A DNA stretch of 64,000 nt from Xestospongia bergquistia (taxonomy: Eukaryota; Porifera; Demospongiae; Haplosclerida; Petrosiidae), in the NCBI GenBank assembly GCA_963965975.1, contig OZ014415.1, positions 5,523,001 through 5,587,000 of the forward strand, given 5' to 3'. Of the stretch, positions 33,223 to 56,723 are shown in pieces. Position 1 is the first letter of the stretch. Each line of letters starts with the position of its first letter. The position numbers were made by a program, and so were the translations under genes. The notes beneath the pieces were generated by a model, which was not told the DNA's origin, made no database searches, and saw only the letters and a list, made by a program, of their open reading frames with translations.

Positions 33223-36200
33223 TTATAATAAATGGCAAACTCCTGACTCTTCTCTTCCTTTTGAAACAACATTCTCTAATCCATTATGAACCAATATTGC
33301 AACTTCTGAATGACTTGGTCCATCTGAAAATGGATTCAAAACTTAAAGTGGAACATTAGTACATACCTTTCAGTAACTTTATTATATCTTCATTTTCTTT
33401 GATGCCAAATTCCTTGGCAAGAAGAAGAGGGGTTTTATCCTCATGGTCTACAGGATTTGGATCAGCTCCATGATGTAATAACAGCTAAAGATCAAAAAAG
33501 TATTAGTGCTACTTAATACATAAGTAGTAACACACTTTTAACAATTCAATTTGATCATAGAGTGTGGCATAATGAACAGCAGTACGTCCATAATTATCCC
33601 TGACATTGAGATCTAGAGCATGTGTTTCTGAAAAAAAAGAAGATATTTGTAAAACAATACTTTTATAATCCTTATACTTTTGGAGTTATCACTGTTGAAA
33701 AAAAAAAGAAAGGAATATTGTATCATCCCTACATAGAGACAATTTATGTATGTAGCTTATGCTATTATACAATATATTCAATGCTGTTTACACTTTGTGC
33801 TCAATTCATCTTACAAAGACTTCACAAGTTATGAAGATAATTTTGAACCAAATAAATATTAAACCAAAGGAAGCATCAAGGAAATAATAATGGGTACCGT
33901 GAGATAATTAAGATTGGCCATTTTATTAATGATCTCATTATTATTCTAAACACCAGTTGTTGGAACTAAAGATAATAGGCTATTGTACACAATGTTAACT
34001 TACTAACTTTTTAGTGTATCAATAACAGCAACTATATAGTTAGAACAGTCACTTGCACTAGCATGATGCAATGGAGTCAGTCCATTCTTGTCAGGACAAC
34101 TAGCAAGTTTTGGAGAGATATTTAAAAGGCACTAGATAGAAAAACAAATTGAAAATTGATAGTGAATGAATGCTATAATTAACCTGTAAACATTGTAATG
34201 ACTTTCGCTCTATAGCATAATTGGCAAAAGTCTTTCCAGATGAATCCAGTTTCAGTAAATCGATACATCTAATAGGACCAATTAATATAAACACTTCATG
34301 TAATTTTCCATACCTTGGTAATAACAACTTCAAGTGTTCTAAATGGTTATAAAAGATTGCCCAGTGGACTGGAGTTAAGCCACATTTATCTTTTCCATTT
34401 TCCATAGCTGATTTAGGTGAATATCTGTTAAAAGAATTTAAACTGATATTCTAATATTATTGAAATGTCAAAACAAACCTTAAGAGCATTTTCAAACAGT
34501 CAGCACTAGATGGTACTGTACTCCAATGGAAAGCAGTATGTAACTACAAGATAACAACATTGACAGAGTTATAAGTATGTATAGTGATTTACCATTTTAT
34601 CTTTAATACCTATGTTGGCTCCTTTCTTAAGTAATACAGTCAAAGTATCTTTATGGCCATTATAACATGCAATGTGAACTGACGTCAAACCATTTATGTC
34701 TCTTTGATCAATAATAGCTCCACGTTCAATTAGTGCATTACAGGATTTGGCCTATTAGTATAATTTTTTTAATACATAATCAAATAAGATGTGTTAATAT
34801 TATTTGCAGAGCAAACAACAGATTAATCATTGACCTTATTTCCTAGGGCTGAAAACATTAGAGGTGTACGATTTCTTTCGTCTCTCTTATCCACACCATA
34901 CCAATTAATGAGATGTGTGATAACTCCTGGTTCATTCTTTGTAGCTGCAGCATAATGGAGTGGATGAGGGTAATCACTACACCTGAAAAATAACATTATT
35001 TATTTAATTGTTATATTGTTCATGTCATTGTCATATTCACAATGTTTAAACTAACTTTTCCAATGTCTCCAGGTGAGGAACTTCAAATATAACCTTCAAA
35101 TTTGGAGTACCCTCAACTCCATTTCCCTGAAAATGACAGTTTATTAAATTTTATGTAAAGAGTAATGGTTTTTACTTCCTCTTCCTCATCCTCTTCCTCC
35201 TTTGCTTCCTCACTCTGTCCTTGTGCTATTATTAATAATGTAATTACTTTATTATATTTAATGTTGAATACTTACATTCAATAGACAGCCCATCTATCTC
35301 TTCTGTATTTCCTTCCAAGCAGATAAGAGCTGAAATTGATCTTCCATTATTAGAGAGTAGTGAGATATCAGTTTTTTCACTAGTAGATCTTGAAAGTGGA
35401 AGAGTGTTGGGCCGTTGTGGAACATCTTTCTCATTGTTCACACTTTCATAGGTAGGAGCACTACACTCAATACTTTTCTCTTGTACATTTGGACTAGTGC
35501 TGGATTTTGTTAAATCATCTGTTTCATTTGTCTGCAAGTTAGTGTCTTCTATTGTAAACACTTGAGTGTTCCCTTTTAAGTCTGTCTCAGTAGACATTGG
35601 ATGTGATACTTCTTCCACTTGTATAACTTGTATGGAAGATCTAATAGGTGTTGTTGATTCTTTGTCATCACGTAGCAAGGCTTGTATTTCCTCTGCCGAT
35701 ATTGGCTTAGTTCCAGGACGAGGGTCGCGAGCATAGTAGAATAGATTTACAGAATTAGCAAAGACACTGTAGGGTCAAAATATAGTAATGTATTACAATT
35801 TAATGTATTAAAATTATATGTGTCACCTTGAGCCTTCAGAGTGGAAAATAGCTCCTTTGTCAAGCATAATCTGACCAATTCGTTCAGCATCTTCTTCTGA
35901 CGTAACACCTGCTATATTTTTGACTAGCCACTTCACAATCTCATAACCAGAAAATACCGATCCTTTTCCTAAAAATAAATCCACTTCATAAAATAAAGTA
36001 TTGAATGCGTACTAAGGACGGCCAATAACTTGATTATTATGAAAAATTCCATAACAATCATAATGTGATATTTGCACAAACAACATTAATTTAGATTTCA
36101 ATATTACATTGTTTCTTTAATTGTGGTTACCTCTGTGGATTTTCACATGTTCCAATGATCCAGTACAAGCTCTTGGGACACCTTTATCTGGATCCTGGAT

Positions 36201-37719
36201 TACAACTATTAAAGCATCCATAGTCAAATCTTCTGATGACTGATCAGCAGAAATAGAGGAGTGTGATTTTGATGTAAAAGTATAGCATCCTGAAGCAGAC
36301 CTCCTGGGACTAGGCAAAGGGCTATGTTTAGAGAGATGCTCAGGTAAACCTAAGGTAATAAATGTAACCACAGCTATAAATATTTCTTTTACAGTGATTG
36401 TAAAACTATGATATCACTAACAATAATAATTCAGAATATTTAGTTTTACCTGTTTTGATACTGTGTGATTCATCATCACTCTCGTCACTATCCTCACTGT
36501 CACTCCCTCCTTTGTCACTGCCTCTTATAGCTGATACCAATGCTTTGGCTGCCAATTCAGCATCTTTGCTGTCATTTGATTCTTCAGCATTCTGCTGAGA
36601 TTCCTCATCAGATGTTCCTCCATATAGTTTTTGTAATTCCCTCATGTAGGCATTCATTAATGCTTCCTTTGCTAACTTAGTTTTATCTGGTTTGTTCTCA
36701 ATATTTCTTGCTTTAGATGCAAGTTGTAATATACCTGTACAGGCTTCATAGTGACTTGAATGCACTTTATTTGAGACGCAAGAAATAAGAAGAGTCTTAC
36801 AATTTCCTCCTAACGATTCTTTGATAATTTGCATAAGGATAGAATCTCCAGTCTTGTTAGGAATATTAGGCAAAACCTCCAGTGTCAATGTATGGACAAC
36901 TTGTACAAAGTCACTAACACTTTTGAGAGTTAGTGTAGTCGATGAATTGGCTGTTATGAGGTCTTGAAGATTAAGGTCATTTGGAATGTTGATAGTGACA
37001 AATGACAATGTACCACTGATGGGAGCAAACATTGAGCCAAATTTAGCAAATTGAACACCAATAGTAAATATAGTTTGGTAGACAGATTGTGATGATGTGG
37101 TCATTAACTTGACCTTGTCCCCATGTTGAAGTATCTTGATGACATCAGATGATTTCTTTGCTTCAGAAGTAGTTAGATCAACCAATTTGCTATCAGTAAT
37201 TTGTAATTGATCATCACCATTATGAACTTGGTTATCATCACTTTTAAAACTATGGAGCAGATCATGTGCTACTTCATTTTGCAAGAGAACATAAGAACAC
37301 GGTACAACTAAATTAGCAGATAAACCTGACTTATTGAGCTCCTTTAGACATCGAAATATTTGCTTTGCAGCCCTCATAACAATACCTGATGGTGTACAAA
37401 GAATGAGTTTATTGTGTCCAGCGTGAGAATCTCCAAGAGATATGACAGTTCCATGAAATCCTTCTAGAACACTATTGACTAATGGAGCGACGCTATGCGA
37501 ATAGATATCCCGTTCTGGTGACTGAGATGGAGGGAAAACGAAATCAAAATGAAATGCGAGTGAGGATGCTATGTGAGGGTGTGGCTCATCTTTGCAGACA
37601 GTCACTGATCCTGCATCATTTCTTCGTACAATAGAAACGTTGGAATCATCCGTCGTGGAACATCTACTGTCTTCGGATTCCATCAACTGCAGAATAGAGA
37701 CAAAGTATTTGTCTGCCAT
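33223..37719 (-). CDS. Kinesin-like (ATPase-dead) + DEP + ankyrin repeat protein
   Basis: Fifteen exons, all in phase, 1,081 aa: 37719-36450, 36349-36131, 35968-35827, 35766-35276, 35225-35176, 35126-35056, 34982-34835, 34751-34593, 34543-34479, 34424-34314, 34268-34184, 34131-34008, 33627-33536, 33484-33367, 33323-33223. Residues 1-345 follow the kinesin motor fold (FHFDFVFPPSQSPERDIY, PLVNSVLEGFHGT, ESLGGNCKTLLISCVS, LASKARNIENKP). The nucleotide-binding motifs are gone: the P-loop slot reads SLGDSHAGHNK, switch I reads TSSQSVYQTIF instead of SSRSH, and switch II reads INIPND instead of DLAGSE. An acidic Ser/Asp/Glu linker follows. Then comes a DEP domain of R7-RGS type (about 465-570: IQDPDKGVP, VFSGYEIVKWLVKN), a Ser/Thr-rich linker, a Glu-rich exon, and about nine ankyrin repeats (750-1060: PLHYAAA, NGLTPLHHA, YGRTAVHYA). 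The start is the ATG in AAGATGG. AATAAA lies 18 bp after the stop. Likely a microtubule or scaffold protein rather than a motor (inference). Confidence 0.82.
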
Positions 37720-37769
37720 CTTGCATAGCACCAACGCCCATTTGAGGTAATTTAAAATAAATATTAATT

Positions 37770-40040
37770 TTATTCATTTTTGAAAGCACATAGTGCAAAG
37801 CAACGTGGTGACAATACGGGAGAGAAAACTTGATACAACCACGCAGTTTGTAAACCAGAGCTAACCTACAAATTTGGATCAAACCAAATAAAACAATTAC
37901 ATGAGTAACTTTACTTGGTGTTCAAGGAGAAACAATAATCTGTCCAACAAAAGTATAGATTCAATAACAGGTGCTAAAATAGCTCTTATCTATACAAAAG
38001 TAACACAATAGTTATTATAATATACAACTAAACCTGTACGAAACATTGCATTTCAGTTAGTCTTGGCAAAAAATGGTGATAATACATATCCAGTACTTCA
38101 TCTGAGGGTTGTTGTTCAGGAGACAAGTTGAGACGTGAAAATGCTTTTTTAGCATAATCAATGAAGTCTTTGTATTTCTTGATACGTCCAACACGAAAGT
38201 CTTTGGAACTAAGACAAAATGATTAGAGAAATAAATTCAGGGGCTCACTTTTCTCTATTCTTGATAAGCTTCATTTCTTGCTGAAATATGACCTAATAAT
38301 CCAACTAAACCAGATTATGATATCTATTGTCATCTTTATCACCTGAAGAATTGCCCTGTAAAATACTGATTTAAGAGCATTTCCTGATGTAATATCACAA
38401 AACAAAGCTTCATTTTGACCAGCCAACATACGAATATTACGACCAAGAGTGGAACTTTTTTCTAATAAAAACTCACTCATTGGAAAACCAGGAACATCAT
38501 CTAAATGTACAAAATCATAACATGTTCAGAAAACAACCAATTAACTGCAGTACCTCCAGGTATGTCATCTTTTTCAGTCACATGATGATAACAACAACCA
38601 ACTAAACACAATACCTTCAATGTATTACATTTGACAAACTCCCTCATAATAATACTAGCTAGATCACCACATGTATGTAGACCAACTAGTGCAGTAGACT
38701 CATGAACATTGAACCACCTAATCCCATTATCTTTTATTAAATCCAAAATACTGTCACTCTGGGAGTCCAGGCAACATGTTAAAGGAGTGTAAGACTGGTT
38801 ATCTTTAACTTGTAGGCCAGTGGTAAATCCCTTATCATCTCTATCCAAGTCATCATTAGTTTCAGTTACTATTTGATCATGTTCAATGAAAGACATCTCT
38901 TCAGTTGGTTGGTCTTTTTGCATAGCTGTTAAGTCCTGACTATAATCACATCCAACTTCCATAGACAAGATATTTTCATAACCTATGGATGTATTGTTTG
39001 CTGTCACAGTTAATGGTAATGGTAACTGTAGTGTCTCTTGAAATATTGTTTCCTCATGTGGATAAGAATTGAATGAATTACTCTCTGGATACGATTGTGT
39101 TTGTTTTTTATCTCCAAAATACTTCTCAACTTTTCGACAACGCTCTAATGCACTCTGAGTATTAACTGGTTGAGAGTCAATACCAATAACTTTCAATTTA
39201 TGCTGAAATGATAGAGACTCACTCAAATATCCTTTACCACTTCCTATATCAATGACCTATAGATACAGATGGACAATAAGCATTTAATTAGTATCACACA
39301 ATTCAGGGAGCATGGAGAAAGGGTTACAGAATGCGTGGGTACCAATAGCATATTCACGTCTAATCATGTGTATAGTCAAAGATTACCATATATTATACAA
39401 AGCCTACTAACAGTAGCTTGGACCACCAGTAAATGTATCCTTACATAACATTTTACTATATTATTACATGTGACTTTGAAAGTTAACTTTTAGTTGTTTT
39501 AATTTTTTATTTAGATTGTTTCTTTGTTATTTCAATTACAATAGTAGATGTATAATGAAATATTAGATATATACCTGTTGAATTCCAAGTGGAGAAATAA
39601 TCCTCTTAACTAAGTCTGCCATTTTCTCTACTTCGTGCACTTTCTTCTTACACATACCAAACTGATCTAAGCAAGATGGATTGTAATTGTTATGGGAGGG
39701 CGGGGTTTCCAGCATATATTCATGCGAAAGTAGTTTTAGGTGATGAATTGTCAATAAAAATTCTTTTAAAGGTCCTACAGAAATATAACTAATGTTTTAT
39801 AATGAATATTACTTGCAAACCCTATTTACCTTGTGTAAGCTTTTCTGGATAAAGAAACTCTTTAGGTTCTTGCAAAGAAAGTAAGTCTACTTTCCATTCT
39901 TCAGGAATTATTCGTTGCCAGTGGTTCTCTGTGAAGTAATCCACTGTATGGGAGTTAGCAATTGATCTGTATTGAAATATAAAATCGTAGAGCTGTTCCA
40001 GTCTTTCTGTAGCTTGTTCTCTGTTAAGCTTCCATTCCAT
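37770..40040 (-). CDS. METTL25-like SAM-dependent methyltransferase
   Basis: Eight exons, in phase, 549 aa: 40040-39830, 39774-39575, 39256-38554, 38500-38343, 38280-38249, 38208-38034, 37989-37915, 37865-37770. The SAM-binding motif I is VIDIGSGKGYLSESLSF at residue 138. A long low-complexity insertion separates it from the second conserved block (STALVGLHTCGDLASIIM, LVGCCYHHVTE), as in METTL25/RRNAD1-type proteins. The family C-terminus follows: GFPMSEFL, LGRNIRMLA, ALKSVFYRAILQ, and finally VFSPVLSPRCFALCAFK. Human METTL25 is about 600 aa. One splice choice (GGAG|GT at 38554) gives the slightly odd IPGDDVPGFPM join. The substrate cannot be told from sequence. It is divergent from the ANKIB1-like gene (81 bp between ATGs). 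Its stop codon lies inside an AATAAA (37769-37774), 50 bp before the next gene's ATG. Confidence 0.88.
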
Positions 40041-40121
40041 CTGAGAGGAGTGGTAGTTGGTAAATCAGTAAAATCACGCCCCTAATCATTGGTAATGAAA
40101 TTTCTCTGACAAAGAAAGAAG
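40041..40121. promoter_or_regulatory. Presumed bidirectional promoter METTL25 / ANKIB1
   Basis: Only 81 bp separate the two divergent start codons, so both 5' UTRs and the core promoters must lie here or overlap into coding sequence. No TATA box is evident. Confidence 0.55.
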
Positions 40122-42473
40122 ATGGGAGGTGCACAGTCGAAGCAATTCTTTCGAGCTTTGAAGGAAGGAGACGAACAAAAAGCCCTTGATCTTTACGATT
40201 CGACTAAAGAATTAAAAGAGATTAATCCTAACCAAAGTTATGGAAGATTTTATAGAAGCGTAACTCCTCTCCACTTGGCAGCAAAGCGAGGCTTCTCGAA
40301 ACTATTCAAAACCTTTATGATTAATGGAGGTCTTGCCAACCAAAGAGACAGTCGTAAACAATCAGTAGTTCATCACATATGCTGTGCATCTAATGGTAGT
40401 AATGTTAATGTTGATGATATTCGAGCAGATATGCTTTTGTTTTTAATCAATTTCTGCACGGCTCCTGAAACTGTTTGCCCTGACAAGCATTTAAGTTGTC
40501 AGATTCTTGACCTTAATGGACAAGACAAAGCCCTAAATACACCACTCCATTTGGCAGCTTCTTCAGGGTTAACGTTGTGTTGTAAAATCCTACTCAATCA
40601 TGGTGCTGCTGTGCATCTTCTCAATATTGCTGGTCAAACAGCATTTACTGCAGCTGAAATTTCAGGCCATACAGAAATTGTGAAACTTTTAGAACCTAAA
40701 ATGGTTTTTATGGTGACATCAGAGGCTGCGCTGGTTGTCGAGAAACCATCTCCATTACGAATGGAATCATATCAAGGTGTTCAAAAGCAAGACATTATGG
40801 AGATCAAAACAGAAATAGTTGAACACACAGCGTCAATTTTAGATATACCTCTGCCCGCAGCTGAACAATTGCTATACCATTACAGTTGGTCGCAACAACT
40901 TATCATTGATGCATGGCTAGATGATCCAGTCAAGGTGTGTGATACAGCTAAAGTCAAACTACCAGCAGTCCGTCAGACAAGTTTAGCTGTTGAAGTAGCT
41001 CAAATGAGACAATTGTCAAAGGAAGAACATATATGTGAAATTTGTGGCGATATATGTTTAGAAGTAGTACCTAACCCAGGATGTAATCATGCCTTCTGTA
41101 AAGATTGTTGGCAGGAATATTTACGTTGTAAGATCACGGAAGGGAAAGTAGTCAATATACCATGTCCAGGATTTGGTTGTAATGATTATATTGTTCATGA
41201 AATGGTTATGAAGTTGATGCCAACTAATCTCGATAGTAAATTTGCAGATTTTGATATTGGGGCTTTTATTGAAGCTAATCCAAACACTCGATGGTGTCCA
41301 TATCCTGGTTGTGAGCGAGTAGTACATTTGAAACTCGAACAGCAACACAGTTTAGAAGGTCCTGATGGGAGTGGCAATGGAGCTCAGTCTAATCCAACTC
41401 CAAGAAATGTTGATTGTGGTATTGGGCACTTCTTTTGCTGGGCATGTTCTGAAGAAGCACACGATCCATGTAGCTGTGAGACGTGGAAACTATGGAAAGC
41501 AAGAATTGAGAGCATTGAAGGAACAGATCCTAGTTCTAAACTAGTTGATAAAGTAACCAGTGAAGCTTGGATAGCAAAAAATAGCAAACCCTGTCCAAAA
41601 TGTAAAATGTCCATTGAAAAGAATGATGGTTGTAACCACATGACTTGTTCTAAGTGTGGACATGATTTCTGTTGGGTATGTTTAGGTCGTTGGGCTATTC
41701 ATGGGAGTCGTACAGGAGGGTATTATCAATGTAATCGTTTCCGAGCAGCTAAAAGAGCTAAAGATCATCTTGATGCATTGAAACAGAAAGCAGAAGCAGA
41801 ATCTAAAAAGAAGAATACTCGCTACTTCAAACATGTCTATAGCAGATACACAAATCATATTCATAGTCTTAAATTAGAAGAAGAACTTCAGACAAAAATG
41901 CCAGAGAAGATGGCAGCTGTTATAGCCAGTGCTTTAGCAAACACTCAAAATGTTGCATCTGCTAATGAAGGAAAATTTGCAAAGGATGCAATTCGTGAGC
42001 TAGTGAAAGCACGTGTAGTTTTGCGTTCATCATATGCTCTGAGTTATTATGTGGAATCTGATGGAAATAGAGATGGTCTAATGAAAATAGTTGCTCCATT
42101 AGAGAAGGCAGCCGAAAGTCTAGCTGAAATGATAGCTCGTCCTCACCTTTGCACTCCAAAAGATAAGATTATCTTAGCCACTATAAAATGCCGTGAAGTT
42201 CGGCGACATTTAATACCCAAGGCAAGAGAATATAATGTACATCATGTAGAATTGCCTCCATTGGAAGACCCAGAAGATGATTCAAGATCACAATTGTCAA
42301 TATCATCTAATTCTGATATTGAATCTGACTATTCTGATCCACCATCTCCACCCTCACCATTATCACCCAATGAAGACGTATATCTTCCAAGAAATGAATT
42401 AGAAGTTTATTTAGAAGAAAATAGTGAAGATTCAGACGTGGACTCATATGATTCCTATGACTCATACTATTGA
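40122..42473 (+). CDS. ANKIB1-like RBR E3 ubiquitin ligase (intronless)
   Basis: A single open frame of 783 aa. The N-terminus MGGAQSKQ fits N-myristoylation (Gly2, Ser6). Ankyrin repeats at about 46-80 and 138-195 (TPLHLAA twice) are followed by a UBA-like helical segment (about 227-275). The RING1-IBR-RING2 unit follows: RING1 from Cys305 (CEICGDIC), IBR with RWCPYPGCERVV and FFCWACSEEAHDPC, and RING2 from Cys491 (CPKCKMSIEKNDGCNHMTC). By alignment with the Ariadne family, Cys509 in HMTC is the candidate catalytic cysteine that takes the ubiquitin thioester. An Ariadne-like helical region (about 530-690) and an acidic Ser/Asp tail complete it. Vertebrate ANKIB1 is about 1,090 aa and multi-exonic, so absence of any intron is unusual beside its intron-rich neighbours. 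It is convergent with the MNK gene (294 bp between stops). Confidence 0.93.
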   Translation: MGGAQSKQFFRALKEGDEQKALDLYDSTKELKEINPNQSYGRFYRSVTPLHLAAKRGFSKLFKTFMINGGLANQRDSRKQSVVHHICCASNGSNVNVDDIRADMLLFLINFCTAPETVCPDKHLSCQILDLNGQDKALNTPLHLAASSGLTLCCKILLNHGAAVHLLNIAGQTAFTAAEISGHTEIVKLLEPKMVFMVTSEAALVVEKPSPLRMESYQGVQKQDIMEIKTEIVEHTASILDIPLPAAEQLLYHYSWSQQLIIDAWLDDPVKVCDTAKVKLPAVRQTSLAVEVAQMRQLSKEEHICEICGDICLEVVPNPGCNHAFCKDCWQEYLRCKITEGKVVNIPCPGFGCNDYIVHEMVMKLMPTNLDSKFADFDIGAFIEANPNTRWCPYPGCERVVHLKLEQQHSLEGPDGSGNGAQSNPTPRNVDCGIGHFFCWACSEEAHDPCSCETWKLWKARIESIEGTDPSSKLVDKVTSEAWIAKNSKPCPKCKMSIEKNDGCNHMTCSKCGHDFCWVCLGRWAIHGSRTGGYYQCNRFRAAKRAKDHLDALKQKAEAESKKKNTRYFKHVYSRYTNHIHSLKLEEELQTKMPEKMAAVIASALANTQNVASANEGKFAKDAIRELVKARVVLRSSYALSYYVESDGNRDGLMKIVAPLEKAAESLAEMIARPHLCTPKDKIILATIKCREVRRHLIPKAREYNVHHVELPPLEDPEDDSRSQLSISSNSDIESDYSDPPSPPSPLSPNEDVYLPRNELEVYLEENSEDSDVDSYDSYDSYY

Positions 42474-42767: not shown

Positions 42768-47778
<5,011 letters not shown>

Positions 47779-47889
47779 AATATTTGCTACTCCTAATCGC
47801 AATGAGGCAATCCCTATATGCAAAGTATTGATTAACTTAGCCTGGAGGCGTTGCTGGCAATTCAGTAAATGTCTCGATACTTGTCGAGT
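47779..47889. promoter_or_regulatory. Presumed bidirectional promoter MNK / DEP-PH-GPx
   Basis: 111 bp lie between the divergent start codons. The stretch contains no other exon that joins in frame on either strand. Confidence 0.5.
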
Positions 47890-50800
47890 ATGTCACAAGG
47901 TTGTGCTTGTGGAATTTCTACTAAGATCACAGAAGAGAGATCTAGAGATATCAGAAAAGTGAGTTAAGAGATAGACAAACGGCTGATAGCTTCTACTATG
48001 AGTCAAGCAATGTGCTAGTAGTTATTGTGTATAATTGCTTGAACGTTATTATCATAGTAAGTTCATTATATCATTATATCCCTGATTACAGGCTGCTGCA
48101 CTAACTGATAAGATAAGATCTATTGGAGGTCTTACCATACAAGATCGTACTTATCGTTTGAGGACCTATAATACTTGTTTTGTAGGTAGGTTGCAATGTG
48201 TGACTGTCATTATTTGCTACTTAGGGTACAAAGTGATTGATTAAAAGAAATACATTCCCCTCATCACAAAAGATTTGTGTACACTTTGATGCTAATGCTG
48301 GGTGTCAAACAGCTTGTTGGAAGCCAGAAGTAGCATATTAGTCCCATTTACTACAGGACATTTAGCTGTGTTATATAGTGTGCCAGTAACAAAGAAATGC
48401 TTTCATTACTTCAAGTCATGGAGGCAAAAAAATTTTTGTGATATTACTTGTTATGAGATATCTTCAGACAAAATGCCCTTGTACATGATCATGCTTCCTC
48501 TATTTGTCTGGTGTCCTATGATTGTCTGATGACTGATGATTTTCTGGAAGCCTTATTTCCTCTCATCTTATTAGTGATACCTGACATTCTAAGTCATCAG
48601 TAATTTTCTGTAAACTACTATATATTGTAAGATCTATGCTTTAATGAAAGGATTAGAATTTAGTTTTTGCTTCAAATTGAAAGTTTAACTCTAGTATATA
48701 ATAATGTTGTGCTGCCAAAAATACATAAAAGAGAAAAAACACCCAGTATTCTATCAAAAAATCAAACCAATCTTCTCCAGACAAATCTTCACTTTCATCC
48801 TGTAGACATGGAGTGCTTGTGAGACATATGCTAGATCTGATTCTGCCCTCACAAATTTCTAAGCATTGATGTTATTAAACATCAAGATTGGCACGCTATA
48901 GACAAGTTTGTGGGTTTGCAATGATATCATCTTGTTTGTTTATTCATTCCTTGTACACATATAACAAAATAATGTTTTAAAAATAGGTTCGTAAAAAAAC
49001 AGGGAGATTTTCTAAAATTATTTGCATTTTTGATTCGCTTGCATACTTCAGAACTTTATATTGTTTTAATACATAGCTCTCTCTCTGGTCCTCTTACCAG
49101 CTGTATGTTGATGCCTAGGCAGGTTACCTAAAATGATCTTTTAGAATTATTTTTGCTGGCACAAGTTTTTGTGAATAGCTTTCAATGAACAGAAAAGTAT
49201 ATTTTGGTACAACTTTTAATTGAATTTGATTTTATGTTGTTATGACTTGTTGTTTTATATCTGACATTAATTGTATCTGTTAGTTTAATCACAGCTGTTT
49301 TATTCCTACCACAATTGTGTTGTATATTTGTAACAGCTGTTTCATTATTGCATATAAGTAATAGAGTTATTTTATTACTGTGAAATAGTTGAGTCTCCAA
49401 GATAGACAACATATATACCTCTTATTTGATAAGCAAAATAGTTGTTAATGACTCATAAAATCTATTTTTCTTTTCTAGCTTCAGAGTTAGTAGATTGGCT
49501 GATCTCCTTGGGAGAAGCTGAAGACAGAAAACAGGCAGTTGCTTTGGGCCAGCTATTAGTTGACACAGATTTTATACATCATGTTGTAGATGAGCATAAC
49601 TTTGAAGATTCCTATCTCTTCTTCAGGTTCAGACAAGATGGTAAGTGTGCGAGAATAGATCACTTTTTACTGTTGAGACCTACACAACTTGTTGTAGAGT
49701 GAGTTTTCATTTAATTTGTTAAGAATACACAGTAACATTTATTATAGTATAGTGTGAGAACAGCTACTTATATATGGCGTTTGGCAGGTTACAAATTTGA
49801 TGATATCAATATTAAGCAATAATTGTAGGTATGGTGACAAAATTTTGTGAATCTGTCAAACTTTGCCAAAAAAATCAAATCAAACTTTATAGTAGTACTG
49901 TAATTATTCTCTTTTCCAGAACCACCTCATGAAGCCATGTCTGGTCCCTCAGTTGCTTATATGAAAGGTGAACAGGGAGCTCTAATAAGTTTATTGGCTA
50001 AGAGGAGACCATTAGCACTTGGCTGGAGTTATTACGTGTTTGCTCTCTCCTCAGCTAATAAGAAGATATATCAATTTAGATCTGAATTAGTATGTTTACA
50101 ATTACTGCATGATAATGTGCTAATTATTACACTTAACTTCCAGTAAGTTAAGGCCTTTCACTTCACACTTAGCTAATCCAGTTTGAACTGGATCAATGCA
50201 ATTTATATTGAGCAAATCCAGATTTAAACTAGATTGAGTTCTGATACATTGTCCAACAAAATTATTGTTAATAATTGATAATTGTACTGTATAATAATGG
50301 TTACATAATATATAATAATATAATATATAATAGTTATATATAGTTATATAATAATTAATAGTTGCTGATAATTGTTTATTGTATAAACAATTACCTAATT
50401 AATGCTAAAGGCCTTAAGCAGTTTATACATCATTCTTCAGAACTGGGGCAGCATGGTTTAGTGTGGCTCAGATTGCTTGTAATATGTTGCCTAAATGACC
50501 ATTGAGTCATACTAAACCAAGTCAATCTGAATAATGTATAGGACTATCTACTTTGACCTTGTTTGGCTTAGCTCTGAATTGTAAATGCAATACAAATACA
50601 CCTAAAAACCAGTGAATTGTAGCACCTTCCACCTAATGTGTATATAAATAAGTTATAAGGAAGTAAATCAGTAATGGCTCTTTTTAAAGTTGGTAGACCA
50701 GCTGTAGTGTGAATGCTTAAGTACCTCTTTAACTACTAAAATGGGAATATCATTTGTGGCAACAATGGACTTTATTACCCTAAGCCATAAGTGGGAGACT

Positions 50801-52569
50801 AGTACACTTGCTATATATGAACAGTAATGTTAACTTTAGTAGAACATAAAATACTTATAATTTTATTTATTGACTGAGTCTTGACAATGTATTTTATTTA
50901 GGACTCATCACCTATTAATTGTTTTTCATTGGAAGATGTATGTGTTCAACCAAATGTTATCAAAAGCAATGATCGGTATATCCTTCAATTTTTTGTAAAC
51001 CATTCTCAAGGTCGAGAAAAAAGTGAGCAGATTAATAATAATTGTCTCCTTTGCTTCACTGATCTTATTAGAATATAATAACTACATTTGGTTTGACTTT
51101 TAGCCATAACTTTGCTATAATCAGAATTAATTTTGATACCAATGGATTCCTTCCATTGTTGTATTTCTTATGAAAATATTCATAAAGTGAGAAACATTTT
51201 CCAAGAATTATTTTTGATAACTCTTGGAAAATGTATGTACGCAATCTCCCCTAAGGAATCACTTCCGTCTGCAAAGTCAAAACAAACAGAGTTTAGTACA
51301 ATTATTGACATAAGAATTACTGAGAAAGTATATGTACTTATTCAGATCAAATAATTAATGTATTACATATATATGTGAGTTTTATTATTTTAAACATTTC
51401 CCAAGAGAGTGATTTGATTTATAATTATGCACTGTAATTAATAGTGTGTGTCACTGTGGGTAAATTTTTGATATAACAATGCGGAAATTGCAACTTGTTT
51501 TAACAACAACAATGTATATCACTATGTGTATATCACTAAATAATAATGTAGTACAAATACTTTATTTTTTCTATAGCAATCTGCCTGGCTGCTGATAGCT
51601 ACGAAACTCAGTTCACTTGGATAAGATCATTAGGTTCTTGTGGAGTAGAGATTTTAGCTTCAACAGATGAGGAAGATGATCTAGTGAGAAATGCCACTTC
51701 TATTTTTGATTTTGAAGCACTTGATATTGAGGGAAAAACTGTTTCTCTTGACAAATACCGGTATGACATGTGACATGCTTCATTTAACTATCCATATATA
51801 GCCTGGTTACTGTTAATTCATTAATTATGTCATAGTAAAAAATTGCCTACTTTTAGTTCTGTAGTAATACATGCTTTGATCAATTCTTTCTCTAGAGGTC
51901 ATATTACTTTAATAGTAAATGTAGCAAGTGAATGAGGTTTGGCGGAGAAGAACTACTCTCAACTGGTGTATCTACATACAAAGTATGCACATAGTAATGG
52001 GTTTCGAATTCTGGCTTTTCCTTGTAACCAGTTTGGAAAACAGGTTAGTAATAATAATCATAATGTAGAACAAAGCTAATGGGAACGCTGTCTTGTAGTG
52101 TATTCATTCTTCTCAGAATTATTTGCATGGACGTACCCTTCCTTTCAATGGATTTACAATTCCATAAGAGTATTGATTATAAGCATTGGGGTGTGGTTAA
52201 TACAATAAGATTACCTGTAGTCTAATGTATTTATTGTCGTTATTGTAGGAGCCAGGTACACTAGCAAATGTTATTGAATATGCTGCCAAACACAGGGCAG
52301 AGTTTGATATATTTTCCAAAATTGAAGTGAATGGACCTAATGCACATCCTCTATTCAAATATCTGAAGTCAAAATTAAAAGGAAATTTAGGAAAGTAAGT
52401 CATTATTTTTAGTGTTATATTCATAATATTTTGTCTGATATTGTCCCAAAAGACATAGGAGGTAACTTTGTAAAATGCTATATTAGACATCTATTAGTTT
52501 ATTACTAACCAGAAGAGTGAATGAAAGATTACATAATATGTGTGTATATATATTTGTGTGTCTCTGGTG

Positions 52570-52607
<38 letters not shown>

Positions 52608-53017
52608 CAATGAGAGAGGAGAAAGAGTCAAGCAATAACTAAGCCTTTCTAGGCAAAATGGCTGTTCTAGGAAAGTAAACATTAACCTGTATATTATAAT
52701 ATGTGTATAATTTGAGTTGAATTTTCCTTTCTTTTCTAATAGTTTTATCAAGTGGAACTATGCTAAGGTATATAGTACATGTTATAGTTAAATCATCATC
52801 TTTGTTATTATAGTTTCTATGTGATAGTAATGGCGTGCCAGTGAAACGTTATTCCCCAACAACACAACCACTCGTAAGTGTAACTAGCAATAGTTATAAA
52901 TTGGATATGTATTTTGTGTTTACCATTATATTTTTATTATATAATACAATTTTTATATTTATTATTTCCAATCAGGATATAGTTCCAGACATGGAAAGCC
53001 TATGGTCTTCTTCATAA
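47890..53017 (+). CDS. DEP-PH-glutathione peroxidase fusion selenoprotein
   Basis: Eleven exons, all in phase, 406 aa: 47890-47958, 48092-48185, 49479-49640, 49920-50089, 50902-51022, 51577-51760, 51896-52043, 52249-52394, 52743-52767, 52814-52873, 52976-53017. DEP, about residues 33-108 (TIQDRTYRLRTYNTCFV, SELVDWLI, LVDTDFIHHV). PH, about 124-232 (QGALISLL, GWSYYVF, LAADSYETQFTWIRSL). GPx, 246-406 (IFDFEALDIEGKTVSLDKYR, NVASE-Sec-G, LAFPCNQFGKQEPG, IKWN). The TGA at 51933-51935 is residue 280, the Sec site of GPx; Gln316, Trp369 and Asn370 complete the catalytic tetrad. The GPx part resembles the monomeric GPX4 type (phospholipid hydroperoxide reduction). The PH-GPx join lies inside exon 6 (51577-51760). 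DEP plus PH recalls pleckstrin, without its first PH. Membrane targeting of the peroxidase is an inference. A conventional gene finder would end it at the TGA or split it. Confidence 0.9.
51933..51935 (+). other. Selenocysteine TGA codon (Sec280)
   Basis: In-frame TGA in GTA-GCA-AGT-GAA-TGA-GGT, reading VASE-U-G. This is exactly the active-site position of glutathione peroxidases. Coding similarity and open frame continue through six further splice junctions to a TAA at 53015-53017. Confidence 0.93.
52571..52604. repeat. (TG)n microsatellite
   Basis: An uninterrupted TG dinucleotide run of about 17 copies, in the intron between exons 8 and 9 of the selenoprotein gene. Confidence 0.9.
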
Positions 53018-53097
53018 TCATCATTCTAATTTTATTTTGTGACTTCATTGTTAACTATATACAATCATTCTTATATAGTTAGTCATACATTGGAAAC

Positions 53098-53156
53098 ATT
53101 AATATGATGGCTTGCCACTAAACCATATACTATGGAATGGAGAGCCTGATTTTACA
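53098..53156 (+). promoter_or_regulatory. SECIS element (type II) in 3' UTR
   Basis: Starts 87 nt after the stop. The 5' quartet ATGA (53104-53107) faces TGAT (53147-53150). Helix II pairs 53109-53117 (GGCTTGCCA) with 53138-53146 (TGGAGAGCC), with one mismatch. The apical bulge holds the conserved AA (53120-53122), 12 nt after the quartet. An extra mini-stem CCAT/ATGG (53123-53126 with 53132-53135) makes it type II. This supports Sec decoding of the upstream TGA. Confidence 0.88.
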
Positions 53157-54158
53157 CAATGCTATCCTTTCGTGTGACGTATAAGAATGTATTTTCTTAT
53201 GTCTGTACTATAATCTATGTAATATTGATCTACCCATACAAATTTTAACTCCATAGATATTGTCATTTTAATATTATATGAGTTCAATATGTAGTTAGAT
53301 GAAGCAACCCTACCAGTGCATTTCACTTTACATTAGATCATTAGAAGTCAGTAGACAAAGATACAATGTCATGTTGAAAGTATACAACTTTGTCACGGTA
53401 TTTGGTTATTAATCTAACTTACTGTGACTTATTGGGCATATTATAAGGTATCTTACTGACAAACACCACTATCAAGCTCAAAAGGAGCCATTCATTCATA
53501 TAATTATGTTCTAAATACTATGCATGTAATAGGAACTGAAAGCAATACTCATTTGTGCACCGCTGTTAATGTGCTAATATTGATTTTGTGGCTTTTTAAA
53601 CATAATTGAAGTTTACTATACACTTCCTGCTTATCTTCCTGACATAATTACTCACGTACATCAACAGGAAATAGTAATTGTAGTAACTATGACCTCTGTT
53701 ATGTACTAAGGGAATTAGTTGTCTGATATTCATTTCTTGTATTGTCAAATGAATAATATTATAAGTGAGTGTCAAAATAAAAAAAAATAGTTTAAAAAAT
53801 AAAATAGATTTATAATAAACAAAGCAGATATATAATAAAGATGAAATAATTTAGTGAAAAGGTAGAGAAGAGTTCAACTCGTGATCAAATGAAGAAGATG
53901 GTAATTTAATTTTCTACATATATAAAGTAAAGGAAAAAGATTTAAATAAGGAGACCACAAAATGGACGAGATAACATACATTCTTCACTTAGTTTGTAAC
54001 AATGAAAAACTGAATGAACAATGCACACAATATCACTATAGTAGCTACAATTCTAGTATAGGGTATACATGTGATACTATAAAGGTATGACTCAATTCTT
54101 AGGATTAAAATCACATAATTAATTAGCTAGTTTTACAAGTTAGTACACAATGTCTTAC
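53157..54158. other. Intergenic / 3' UTR sequence
   Basis: AT-rich sequence between the selenoprotein gene and the minus-strand Mpv17 gene. A possible polyadenylation signal AATAAA followed by an A-run is at 53776-53781. No further gene or RNA was recognised. Confidence 0.5.
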
Positions 54159-55216
54159 TTTATGTTTCATGTATGAGAGGTATACTGTCCATAAAAAGGT
54201 GACAGCTGCAACATAAGTGACTCTGAACTGAGGTGGGATAAAGAAGAAGTTGACTATTTGAGCAGCTGGCCAAATCTTCCAGTCCATCTACGAAAGACAT
54301 GTCATTCGTTAATAACAACAAACACACTATACTGCACAACACTAGACATCACTAACAATGACTGTATGGAACTATGTGGTTTTACATAATTACATAAGAC
54401 CTAAAACAACTATTTATGAGGAAATTGTCATTATAATTATTATTTCCTTTTATGTTAAAATTCTTTAAATTGGTGATATATGCCTTTGTGAAAAGATCCA
54501 CAGAGAGACTAAGTTTACACACTACAGGTGTAACAGTACCTTGTAAGTAGGCCAAAACTTTGTCTTGAGTTCATCTACACATTCTTGTTTATTGTGTCCT
54601 TCCAATGTGGACATACCTAGAGAACAGTGACAATAATTAGTGGTTTACATGAACTCTGATTAACAGATATCAATTACTGAAGGAACATGTATGCTTAGGG
54701 CTGTCTCTGTATGCACTACTTCACAGGATTATATCGTCAACAGATCTCAATTTACATTCTCTACTTTAAAAATCCATTATATATATATATGTATATCCTT
54801 TCTAGTTGCATGATGTGTTTCTACCTAACCTGTTACACAAAGAAACAATACAACTTACCGAGAAAAAACAGAGTACAACAGATGGGAGCCATTATTATTT
54901 GATCTAGCATTACTTTTCGAAACACTGTAGCTGTAGTTACTGCAGGTAACAACCTGTCCAATGCCGTGTACCAGAAATGATCTAAAGGGCCCAAACAACA
55001 GCCCAAAAATCCCATTCGACCAGTTCGAGACCAGTTCAATTCTTTTCCATCTATCTTTTGTCTGCAGAAGTCACCCGCTGAATACAAGACACAGCAAGTG
55101 CCTGTGTTGATTAGAAGGAGTCTAACAGAAGATTTGCGAATCAATATCTTCCCTTGAAGTTGCTGCCATCTCTGTATACTTGACCTAATAACTGAATGAG
55201 TTAATACTGCTTGCAT
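54159..55216 (-). CDS. Mpv17/PMP22-family protein, copy a (MPV17L2-like)
   Basis: Exons 55216-54859, 54616-54540 and 54287-54159 are in phase and give about 188 residues. A last exon of a few codons is unresolved; the best guess is 54097-54092, an acceptor CCTAAG followed by Asn-stop. The family core is evident: [26 protein letters not shown], here cited in parts [16 protein letters not shown] and VFRKVMLDQ, then [29 protein letters not shown] and a final VYLSYMKHK. Mpv17 proteins are small four-helix membrane proteins of the mitochondrial inner membrane or peroxisome; MPV17L2 is linked to mitochondrial ribosomes in vertebrates. The gene is divergent from its paralogue, with 107 bp between ATGs. 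Confidence 0.88.
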
Positions 55217-55323
55217 ATTGCTCGACTTGATATTCGAAGTTGGAGGCTCCTATCATATGCGTACTGTTACTTTATGTATGTCGATAGATACTACTACAGA
55301 TACAGAATGTCTTTATAATAGTG
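55217..55323. promoter_or_regulatory. Presumed bidirectional promoter of the Mpv17 pair
   Basis: 107 bp separate the divergent ATGs at 55216 (-) and 55324 (+). If the pair arose by inverted duplication, this spacer is the symmetry centre. Confidence 0.5.
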
Positions 55324-56723
55324 ATGAGTGATGGTGCTCCACCTACTGTTACGTCTGTTACGTCATCAGGTGCAATGGCATGGAGGAAGGTGTACGATAA
55401 TTTGTTTTCTCGTTATCTCTTATTAACTAACACTGTAGTTAGTGGTGTACTAGAAGGTTTAGGTGATTTTCTTCAACAGAAATTAGAAGGAAAACAAAAT
55501 AATGATTGGCAACGTACAAAGAGAATGACAATAATGGGTCTCATACTTGGACCTCCAGAACACTACTGGTTTAGGCTCCTGGATAAACGATTTCCAGGCA
55601 GATCTCCGACAATTGTAGCTAAGAAAGTCTTTTTAGATGAAACTGTGAACGGAGTCTTTTTTTTAGCTGTGTTTTTTATTGGTACATTATATGTATTAAT
55701 TTTACAATCCATAGAATATGAATATTATTATAAAAATTATAATGTGACTGATGAGATCAATAACCATTGCTGTCTTTGTAGGAATGAGTAAACTCAATGG
55801 ACATAGTTGGAAAGAATCTTTTGGTAATTTTAAAGAAAAGTTTTGGCAAACGTACAAGGTATTGACAATGCAATATTACTACTTTATCCTTCAATACATT
55901 ATAAGATGGAACTACTAGTCTGGCCTGCTGCTCAAGTAAGTATATTTTATTAACATGATCACTAATATGTGATTATGAGTTTCAGAATCCATTGTAGGTC
56001 ATTGTGATATAGTTTAAACAACAAATTTTTTCGTATAGGCAATCAACTTTTACTTGATCCCACCATCATTTCGAGTTATTTATACTAATCTAGTATACCT
56101 TGGTTGGTGTATGTTCTTGTCTCATGTACAACACAAAGTAAGTGAAGACTATGTAAATAATCTAATAGATCTAATGTTGTGTTGTATTTCCATTTATTCA
56201 TTCATACATCATTTTTCAACAGTAGGTATTCAAGTTGTTTACTTTAAAAATACATTGTGTAAACTAAATTTATTTAAAGTTTTAAATATAATAGATCAAA
56301 TATATATGATGCTAGTTAAGCTGTCGTTTTATGAATGTTTTCTGAATATCCCATCAACAGAAAGTGAATCATGCATAAAATGGTACAGAGAATTAATGTC
56401 AATGTTTACTGATCAGTTTTGTATGTTCTACTGTGTAAATGAAGGTGTAGTAAACATTTCTGTTGTATCTAGTATGCTAATGTCAGTTAATAAGACCCTC
56501 AGTATTGTTGAAAAATACACCTTGTTAAACTTTTGTGCTAAATTCATAATACACAAGACTGTTATTCATTCCAATCCTTCTTGTATCTATGTAAAGTTTA
56601 TACATCCATGAGTTTTGAGTGACTATTTCACTTTATACCTTTTAACAATTTATCTTGACTTCTTCATTGTCATTTAATTAGGACATTCACCACAAAGAGA
56701 AAGGCAGAAGTGAAAATACCTGA
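55324..56723 (+). CDS. Mpv17/PMP22-family protein, copy b (MPV17L2-like)
   Basis: Exons 55324-55681, 55782-55858, 55906-55935, 56039-56137 and 56682-56723 are in phase, 201 aa. I start at the ATG of 55324 (ATGAGTGATGG). Core motifs: RMTIMGLILGPPEHYWFRLL, VAKKVFLDETVNG, GMSKLNGHSWKE, KEKFWQTYK, LVWPAAQ, INFYLIPPSFRVIYTNLVYL. Exons 1 and 2 have exactly the same lengths as in copy a (358 and 77 nt). Exons 3 and 4 here (30+99) equal the single 129-nt exon of copy a, so one intron was gained or lost after duplication. The final exon (DIHHKEKGRSENT) is less certain. Reading on through the 56,138 donor gives a 185-codon frame that I take as intron. Confidence 0.86.

What the first reader, a model, noticed from the sequence alone, without database searches (positions are those of the whole stretch)
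47890..53017. Selenocysteine glutathione peroxidase fused to DEP and PH domains
All eleven exons join in phase. The PH C-terminal helix (AADSYETQFTWIRSL) and the GPx N-terminus (IFDFEALDIEGKTVSLDKYR) lie about 25 residues apart in the same uninterrupted exon (51577-51760), so this is not two genes merged by mis-splicing. GPx proteins are normally single-domain. A DEP-PH module should target phosphoinositides or membranes, which would place a GPX4-type lipid-peroxide reductase on chosen membranes and could couple it to signalling. I know of no described protein with this layout.
Basis: partly seen in the sequence, partly recalled or inferred. Interest (0 to 1): 0.92.

Follow-up and report, generated by a model that had tools for sequence, protein, structure and literature searches.

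The report
DEP–PH–selenium peroxidase fusion gene
In this animal genome, probably a sponge's, the only GPX4-type selenium enzyme gene found, the kind that protects membranes from lipid peroxides, is joined in one reading frame to two signalling domains (DEP and PH) instead of standing alone.

Summary
An 11-exon model (47890-53017; 10 of 10 introns GT-AG, in phase) encodes 406 residues: DEP (1e-24), PH (2.5e-4, just under Pfam's cut-off) and a GPX4-type peroxidase (1e-36) with TGA at the catalytic position. Exon 6 holds PH end and GPx start. Only the exon 1-2 and 3-4 (DEP-PH) joins rest on splice signals alone.

New here: a probable SECIS at 53096-53162, right motifs but sub-threshold score; a tRNA-Sec gene; only two GPx genes found in the assembly, this and a Cys-GPX7-like one; no methionine between residues 123 and 399, so no bare GPx can start inside the modelled exons, though a PH-GPx form could start at Met115.

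'Should target phosphoinositides' is weak: the usual PH motif is absent and DEP is acidic. Conservation elsewhere is untested; the protein database was unavailable. Seven PMC searches (capped lists) showed no such protein.

The parts
47890..47958 (+). coding exon 1 (residues 1-23, MSQGCACG...; alternative in-frame start at 47869)
   Evidence: donor 8/9, no domain support; in-frame TAA at 47866
48092..48185 (+). coding exon 2: start of DEP
49479..49640 (+). coding exon 3: rest of DEP
   Evidence: best match DEPTOR DEP
49920..50089 (+). coding exon 4: linker (Met115, Met123) and first half of PH
50902..51022 (+). coding exon 5: middle of PH
51577..51760 (+). coding exon 6: PH C-terminal strand and helix, acidic linker, GPx N-terminus, all in one open exon
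51896..52043 (+). coding exon 7: GPx active site with TGA = Sec280 and Gln312
51933..51935 (+). TGA codon read as selenocysteine 280
   Evidence: GPx homology continues on both sides
52249..52394 (+). coding exon 8: GPx
52743..52767 (+). coding exon 9 (25 nt, NFIKWNYAK): catalytic Trp369 and Asn370
52814..52873 (+). coding exon 10: GPx
52976..53017 (+). coding exon 11 with TAA stop
53096..53162 (+). probable SECIS element (AUGA ... UAAACC ... UGAU)
   Evidence: RF00031, 16.1 bits, E 9.3, gathering score 35; pattern-and-fold scans of my own; fold z -1.82
53776..53781 (+). first AATAAA after the stop codon
   Evidence: no AATAAA in any of the 10 introns

Best explanation
The locus encodes one polypeptide, DEP-PH-GPx, whose C-terminal half is a monomeric, selenocysteine GPX4-type peroxidase and whose N-terminal half is a DEP-PH module that places or regulates it. 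Shown by sequence: the gene structure, domain identities (PH borderline), the Sec codon in an intact catalytic tetrad (Sec280, Gln312, Trp369, Asn370), a tRNA-Sec gene in the genome, and no second GPX4-type gene found. Inferred: that all exons are joined in the mRNA; SECIS-directed Sec insertion at the UGA; reduction of lipid hydroperoxides with glutathione (from GPX4 homology); and recruitment of the enzyme, by DEP and PH, to a membrane-associated protein partner or lipid, so that this animal's main GPX4 activity is anchored or switched by signalling rather than free in the cytosol. Because the PH lacks the usual phosphoinositide motif, docking to a protein partner, or binding another acidic lipid, is favoured over phosphoinositide binding.
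For: In-phase 11-exon model, 10 of 10 GT-AG introns, no AATAAA in any intron and the ATTAAA variant only in intron 2. PH spans exons 4-6 and GPx exons 6-11, bridged in exon 6. GPX4 structures match at about 2e-55 (190 bits) against 119 bits for GPX7 and 94 for GPX1. DEP matches DEPTOR best (best single stretch 74.7 bits). Probable SECIS starting 79 nt after the stop. tRNA-Sec: 78 bits against a cut-off of 47, the only one of 13 listed matches above it, and anticodon TCA by ARAGORN. Two GPx genes found in 146.5 Mb. Methionines only at 1, 115, 123 and 399.
Against: No transcript or proteomic evidence. The exon 3 to 4 join is bridged by no domain, and Met115 follows GCC (a fair start context), so a PH-GPx form without DEP is possible. 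PH is at, not above, Pfam's cut-off and its best PDB match is only E 0.19. The SECIS score is well under Rfam's threshold and its fold is only modestly stable (z -1.82); a strict SECIS pattern occurs in 35 of 1000 shuffled 3' UTRs. No phosphoinositide motif was found in PH and DEP is acidic. No orthologue could be examined.
Confidence: 0.8

Rival explanations
1. The gene makes mainly a bare or shorter GPx from an internal promoter, and the DEP-PH-GPx chain is a minor isoform. Either a PH-GPx form starts at Met115 in exon 4, or an unseen first exon in intron 5 or 6 is spliced to exon 6 or 7. (Not exclusive of the best explanation.)
For: Vertebrate GPX4 uses alternative first exons (recalled). 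Met115 has a fair start context (gaagccATGt). With donors of 7 or more of 9 consensus positions, introns 5-6 hold 1 ATG-to-donor stretch in phase with exon 6 and 2 five-residue ones in phase with exon 7; whether this exceeds chance was not tested.
Against: No in-frame Met between 123 and 399, and none in the open frames that extend exons 6 and 7 upstream. The introns hold no AATAAA. I ran no promoter search.
Confidence: 0.25
2. Two adjacent genes, DEP alone (exons 1-3) and PH-GPx (exons 4-11), are joined wrongly in the model.
For: No domain bridges exon 3 to exon 4; Met115 lies early in exon 4.
Against: Strong donor (8/9), strong acceptor (11 of 12 pyrimidines), matching phase 1, and neither AATAAA nor ATTAAA in the 279-nt intron 3. 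A PH-GPx fusion would remain in any case, because exon 6 bridges it.
Confidence: 0.1
3. DEP-PH and GPx are joined in the gene but the join is functionally neutral: a recent accident in one species, with the enzyme working like ordinary GPX4. (Not exclusive of the gene structure in the best explanation.)
For: Conservation could not be tested; there is no phosphoinositide motif in PH.
Against: DEP is well preserved (E 1e-24) and the coding frame scores best in 10 of 11 exons. No second DEP-PH copy was seen in the genome (best candidates only), which argues against a very recent capture by duplication.
Confidence: 0.25
4. The TGA is a true stop and the gene is a DEP-PH gene with a decayed GPx tail.
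For: The SECIS candidate is below Rfam's gathering score.
Against: GPx homology continues without another stop through exons 7-11 with the catalytic residues and splice sites intact; the TGA sits exactly at the catalytic Sec; SECIS motifs and tRNA-Sec are present.
Confidence: 0.03

Closest known systems
GPX4 (phospholipid hydroperoxide glutathione peroxidase)
   Same: Catalytic domain collinear with GPX4 structures, Sec-Gln-Trp-Asn tetrad, Sec codon, probable SECIS. From memory, the splice junctions after LDKY(R), FGKQ, LG, the 25-nt mini-exon and QPL match human GPX4.
   Different: Carries about 245 extra N-terminal residues with DEP and PH; no methionine in the GPx part before residue 399; the Lys after the catalytic residue and Gly of GPX4 is Leu here. 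GPX enzymes are described as a single GSHPx domain (PMC9925728, passage seen).
DEPTOR, Epac and P-Rex (DEP domains)
   Same: Best single DEP stretches: DEPTOR DEP1 74.7 bits, Epac2 61.3, P-Rex2 second DEP 59.7. The DEPTOR DEP tandem binds phosphatidic acid (PMC8439649, passages seen).
   Different: One DEP, not a tandem; no PDZ, GEF or cyclic-nucleotide domain; followed by PH and a peroxidase.
Pleckstrin (PH-DEP-PH)
   Same: Order DEP then PH (pleckstrin layout recalled).
   Different: DEP match is weak: pleckstrin 2 E 4.7e-5, pleckstrin 0.099; no first PH was found; the 2 structures matched by the PH stretch at E 10 include no pleckstrin.
Glutaredoxin-DEP-DUF547 at G000:C6:2734001-2742000 (L027)
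   Same: In the same genome a DEP lies beside another thioredoxin-fold, glutathione-linked domain.
   Different: Different redox enzyme; the exons were not assembled into a model, so it is not shown to be one gene.

Membership tests
GPX4 subfamily | Catalytic tetrad Sec/Cys, Gln, Trp, Asn | tested here: met
   Sec280, Gln312, Trp369, Asn370
GPX4 subfamily | Closest to GPX4 rather than GPX7/8 or classical GPX | tested here: met
   190 bits against 119 (GPX7), 111 (GPX8) and 94 (GPX1); no tree was built
GPX4 subfamily | No oligomerisation insertion of classical GPX | tested here: met
   The 3 alignments shown have only gaps of one or two residues
GPX4 subfamily | Single GSHPx domain | tested here: not met
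   DEP and PH precede it; hence filed as a multidomain variant
GPX4 subfamily | Reduces phospholipid hydroperoxides with glutathione | not testable with these tools
   needs enzyme assay
Eukaryotic selenoprotein | In-frame TGA with homology on both sides | tested here: met
Eukaryotic selenoprotein | SECIS in the 3' UTR | tested here: inconclusive
   53096-53162 has AUGA, AAACC, UGAU in canonical order; Rfam 16.1 bits (gathering 35). A strict pattern scan hit 35 of 1000 shuffled UTRs; 0 of 1000 at -12.9 kcal/mol or lower, but under that scan the element itself scored -11.8
Eukaryotic selenoprotein | tRNA-Sec in the genome | tested here: met
   C5:120201-120286, 78 bits, cut-off 47; anticodon TCA
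PH domain | Match to the Pfam PH model | tested here: inconclusive
   21.9 bits in the whole protein, 25.0 alone, cut-off 25.1; alone it covers 11-102 of 105 positions
Phosphoinositide-binding PH | KX7-13(K/R)X(K/R) motif (recalled) | tested here: not met
   0 matches in residues 127-230
DEP domain | Match to the Pfam DEP model | tested here: met
   86.7 bits, cut-off 32.7, 1-72 of 72 positions
DEPTOR/P-Rex class of DEP | Clearly closer to these than to other DEPs | tested here: inconclusive
   DEPTOR DEP1 is best by single stretch (74.7 bits), but Epac2 (61.3) scores as high as P-Rex2 (59.7); no tree was built
Pleckstrin | PH-DEP-PH with pleckstrin-like DEP | tested here: not met

The most novel reading that the evidence does not exclude
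The fusion is a selenium-gated signalling enzyme. As the only GPX4 found in this animal, all its phospholipid-peroxide repair by GPX4 is tied to a DEP-PH localisation module, and the UGA lies after a complete DEP-PH, so low selenium would yield a 279-residue DEP-PH protein (where the message escapes nonsense-mediated decay) that occupies the enzyme's docking site, making the module itself a selenium and redox sensor.
Probability: 0.1. Interest if true: 0.9.

Novelty: new variant of a known kind. Interest (0 to 1): 0.62.

Why it matters
GPX4 is the central enzyme that stops iron-dependent lipid-peroxidation death (ferroptosis) in vertebrates, where it is a small free protein (general knowledge). 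An animal whose only GPX4-type gene is fused to signalling domains would show that this activity can be targeted or switched by a built-in module, and gives a natural system in which to ask whether placing the enzyme matters. It also warns that surveys which demand a single-domain GPX, or treat TGA as stop, can miss or truncate such genes.

Tried and rejected
Scans of prokaryote contigs (51 pattern matches, 0 relatives) and viral contigs (8 pattern matches, 0 relatives), both with residues 1-266 only, found nothing, as expected for an animal gene. Structure prediction was not attempted, because the rule admits only proteins read letter for letter from the DNA and this one is spliced.

SECIS. 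Rfam at gathering threshold found nothing in the window, and at E 10 in 51500-56500 two matches, neither a SECIS; only the shorter stretch 53000-54300 gave the sub-threshold match, one of 3 listed and the weakest of them by E-value. In my loose scan of 53018-54900 the element was third of 3 hits by energy; the other two start with CTGA at 54223 and 54228, beyond the AATAAA cluster. In the strict scan of the whole window it is one of 5 hits on the plus strand; the minus strand gave a very long list, of which four lie outside the tandem array (49345, 46361, 45334, 37217), and the one at 49345 folds more stably (-13.3 against -11.8). So pattern hits alone are weak evidence; position, motifs and the Rfam alignment carry the claim. 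The genome-wide SECIS search scored 133 of 3264 candidates and returned 2 hits, neither at this gene; by eye I recognised no selenoprotein gene in the open frames around them, so they are not used. PMC3473315 (passages seen) reports GUGA_AA in 12 of 21 Amphimedon SECIS elements including Aq.Gpx; the element here is AUGA, so it is not of that type.

The idea that DEP-PH is half of pleckstrin was rejected on the DEP comparison. A search for papers on a GPX4 cationic membrane patch listed none, so I make no claim from it.

Full report
Observation. I rebuilt the gene from the DNA. Eleven exons join in phase into 406 residues with one in-frame TGA at residue 280 (window 51933-51935) and a TAA stop at 53015-53017. 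10 of 10 introns are GT..AG. Donors match 7 or more of 9 consensus positions in 8 of 10 introns; intron 4 (5 of 9) and intron 6 (6 of 9) are weaker. The coding frame has the best codon log-odds in 10 of 11 exons, trained on two long open frames of the window; the exception is the 25-nt exon 9.

Domains. Pfam finds DEP at 36-105 (E 1e-24), PH at 140-226 (E 2.5e-4, 21.9 bits, cut-off 25.1) and GSHPx at 248-356 (E 1.1e-36). The PH stretch alone scores 25.0 bits (E 2.7e-5), just at the cut-off; its best solved structure is KIAA0053 (1v89) at only E 0.19. I accept it as a divergent PH, with some doubt. DEP spans exons 2-3, PH exons 4-6, GPx exons 6-11. Thus the PH-GPx join lies inside one open exon and each domain ties its exons together; only exon 1 to 2 and exon 3 to 4 rest on splice signals alone. 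Intron 3, the DEP-PH join, has a strong donor and acceptor, matching phase and no AATAAA or ATTAAA.

Enzyme. The catalytic domain is GPX4-type: 190 bits to GPX4 structures, 119 to GPX7, 94 to GPX1, with Sec280, Gln312, Trp369 and Asn370. Homology continues on both sides of the TGA, so it is best read as a Sec codon rather than a stop.

Selenocysteine insertion. A probable SECIS lies at 53096-53162, starting 79 nt after the stop and before the first AATAAA (53776). Rfam RF00031 matches it at 16.1 bits, E 9.3, gathering score 35, with AUGA, UAAACC and UGAU in the canonical places; my own pattern-and-fold scan had listed it before (third of 3 hits by energy, the other two with CTGA and past the AATAAA cluster). 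Against it: the Rfam score is weak, two wider Rfam searches missed it, the genome-wide search did not list it, though it scored only 133 of 3264 candidates, and the fold is only modestly better than shuffles (z -1.82, 8 of 200 as good). In 1000 shuffles of the 3' UTR a strict version of the pattern occurred in 35; with energy -12.9 or lower it occurred in 0, but under that strict version the element itself scores -11.8, so 35 of 1000 is the honest figure. The genome carries a tRNA-Sec: 78 bits, the only one of 13 listed matches over the cut-off of 47, anticodon TCA.

The only GPX4 found. The assembly (146,460,797 bases, 21 contigs) was searched with the GSHPx model (3 matches) and with this GPx domain (5 matches). 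All 8 matches fall in two genes: this one, and a Cys-type GPX7-like gene at C5:184672 with a hydrophobic N-terminus and a C-terminal HKEL. The second was found at 36% identity, so an ordinary GPX4 should have been seen if present. The search is exon by exon and the assembly may be incomplete. Sponges such as Amphimedon are reported to hold only monomeric GPX4 and GPX7 (PMC8614756, passages); PMC9925728 finds GPX4 in Demospongiae only and a partial, putative GPX1/2 in Homoscleromorpha. The pair found here fits a demosponge, but the species was not identified, and 'sponge' is an inference.

No start for a bare GPx. Methionines lie at 1, 115, 123 and 399 only. The open frames that extend exons 6 and 7 upstream hold none. 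A bare GPx would need an unseen first exon; a PH-GPx form could start at Met115. So, as modelled, every GPx molecule carries at least the PH.

Mechanism. The likeliest reading is that DEP-PH places or regulates a GPX4-type peroxidase. The DEP is closest to DEPTOR's first DEP (74.7 bits), then Epac2 (61.3) and P-Rex2 (59.7) by single stretch. DEPTOR's DEP tandem binds phosphatidic acid and associates with mTOR (PMC8439649, passages), so both lipid and protein partners remain open. The UGA lies 108 nt before the end of exon 7, with four more exons after it, so failure of Sec insertion should expose the message to nonsense-mediated decay, as is known for other selenoprotein messages (general knowledge); what escapes would be a 279-residue DEP-PH protein.

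Origin. No second DEP-PH copy was seen in the genome; the other DEP matches are 28-54% identical (best candidates only). By recollection, the splice junctions of exons 7-11, the 25-nt mini-exon included, are those of human GPX4, which suggests that an old GPX4 gene lost its own start and was joined to a DEP-PH gene. In the same genome a glutaredoxin, a DEP and a DUF547 lie in adjacent frames (L027), a parallel link of DEP with a thioredoxin-fold redox domain, not yet shown to be one gene.

Literature. Eight PMC full-text searches bore on the layout or on sponge GPX: 20 of 30 papers listed; 20 of 65; 15 of 10,944; 15 of 37; 8 of 8; 15 of 1,103; 3 of 3; 0. I saw no listed row that describes GPx joined to DEP or PH; I judged by titles, abstract starts and term counts. 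I read sections 11 and 15 and passages of PMC9925728, and passages of PMC8614756 and PMC3473315. [quoted passage not shown] In six species, four of them sponges, it dropped 4 of 19 GSHPx-bearing sequences by domain structure; which ones was not visible, so such a fusion could have been seen and set aside. Supplements could not be read and protein databases could not be searched, so the layout may exist unannounced in public sponge annotations.

Verdict. A real and unusual domain architecture of a known enzyme: new variant of a known kind. Interest 0.62, held down by the lack of transcript and comparative evidence and by the unresolved role of DEP-PH.

Noticed in passing
window about 200-26200, minus strand: A very large tandem array with a unit of roughly 42 nt (ATCTAAATGGACGAATGATCAGTAAATGGATGAATGA-like), seen as repeated pattern hits; the unit length is by eye.
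   Followed up: no
window 34100-37773, minus strand: A kinesin-motor-like open frame (Pfam Kinesin E 2.6e-27) followed by a DEP exon at 35823-36011 (5.2e-9) and, by eye, ankyrin-like frames; the P-loop looks degenerate by eye. Possibly another DEP fusion in the same window.
   Followed up: partly
L027 (G000:C6:2734001-2742000), minus strand: Glutaredoxin (7.7e-22), DEP (two pieces, 2.1e-6 and 6.2e-10) and DUF547 (5.9e-10) in adjacent frames, possibly one gene.
   Followed up: partly
window 40110-42473, plus strand: A 787-residue uninterrupted open frame in an intron-rich region, by eye ankyrin repeats plus an RBR-type ubiquitin ligase.
   Followed up: no
window 54123-55249 minus and 55288-56200 plus: By eye two Mpv17-like genes in opposite directions; but Pfam found no family for the one frame tested, 55288-55791, so the label is doubtful.
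   Followed up: partly
window 46051-46506, minus strand: Protein kinase frame (Pfam Pkinase 3e-8), MNK-like by eye, upstream of and divergent from the fusion gene.
   Followed up: no
window 47704-47892, minus strand: An open minus-strand frame, by eye coding-like, abuts exon 1 of the fusion head to head, so exon 1 and a neighbouring gene's start may share a short promoter region.
   Followed up: no
L001 (G000:C5:184672-185043): The other GPx gene: Cys-type, hydrophobic N-terminus, C-terminal HKEL, GPX7-like by eye.
   Followed up: partly
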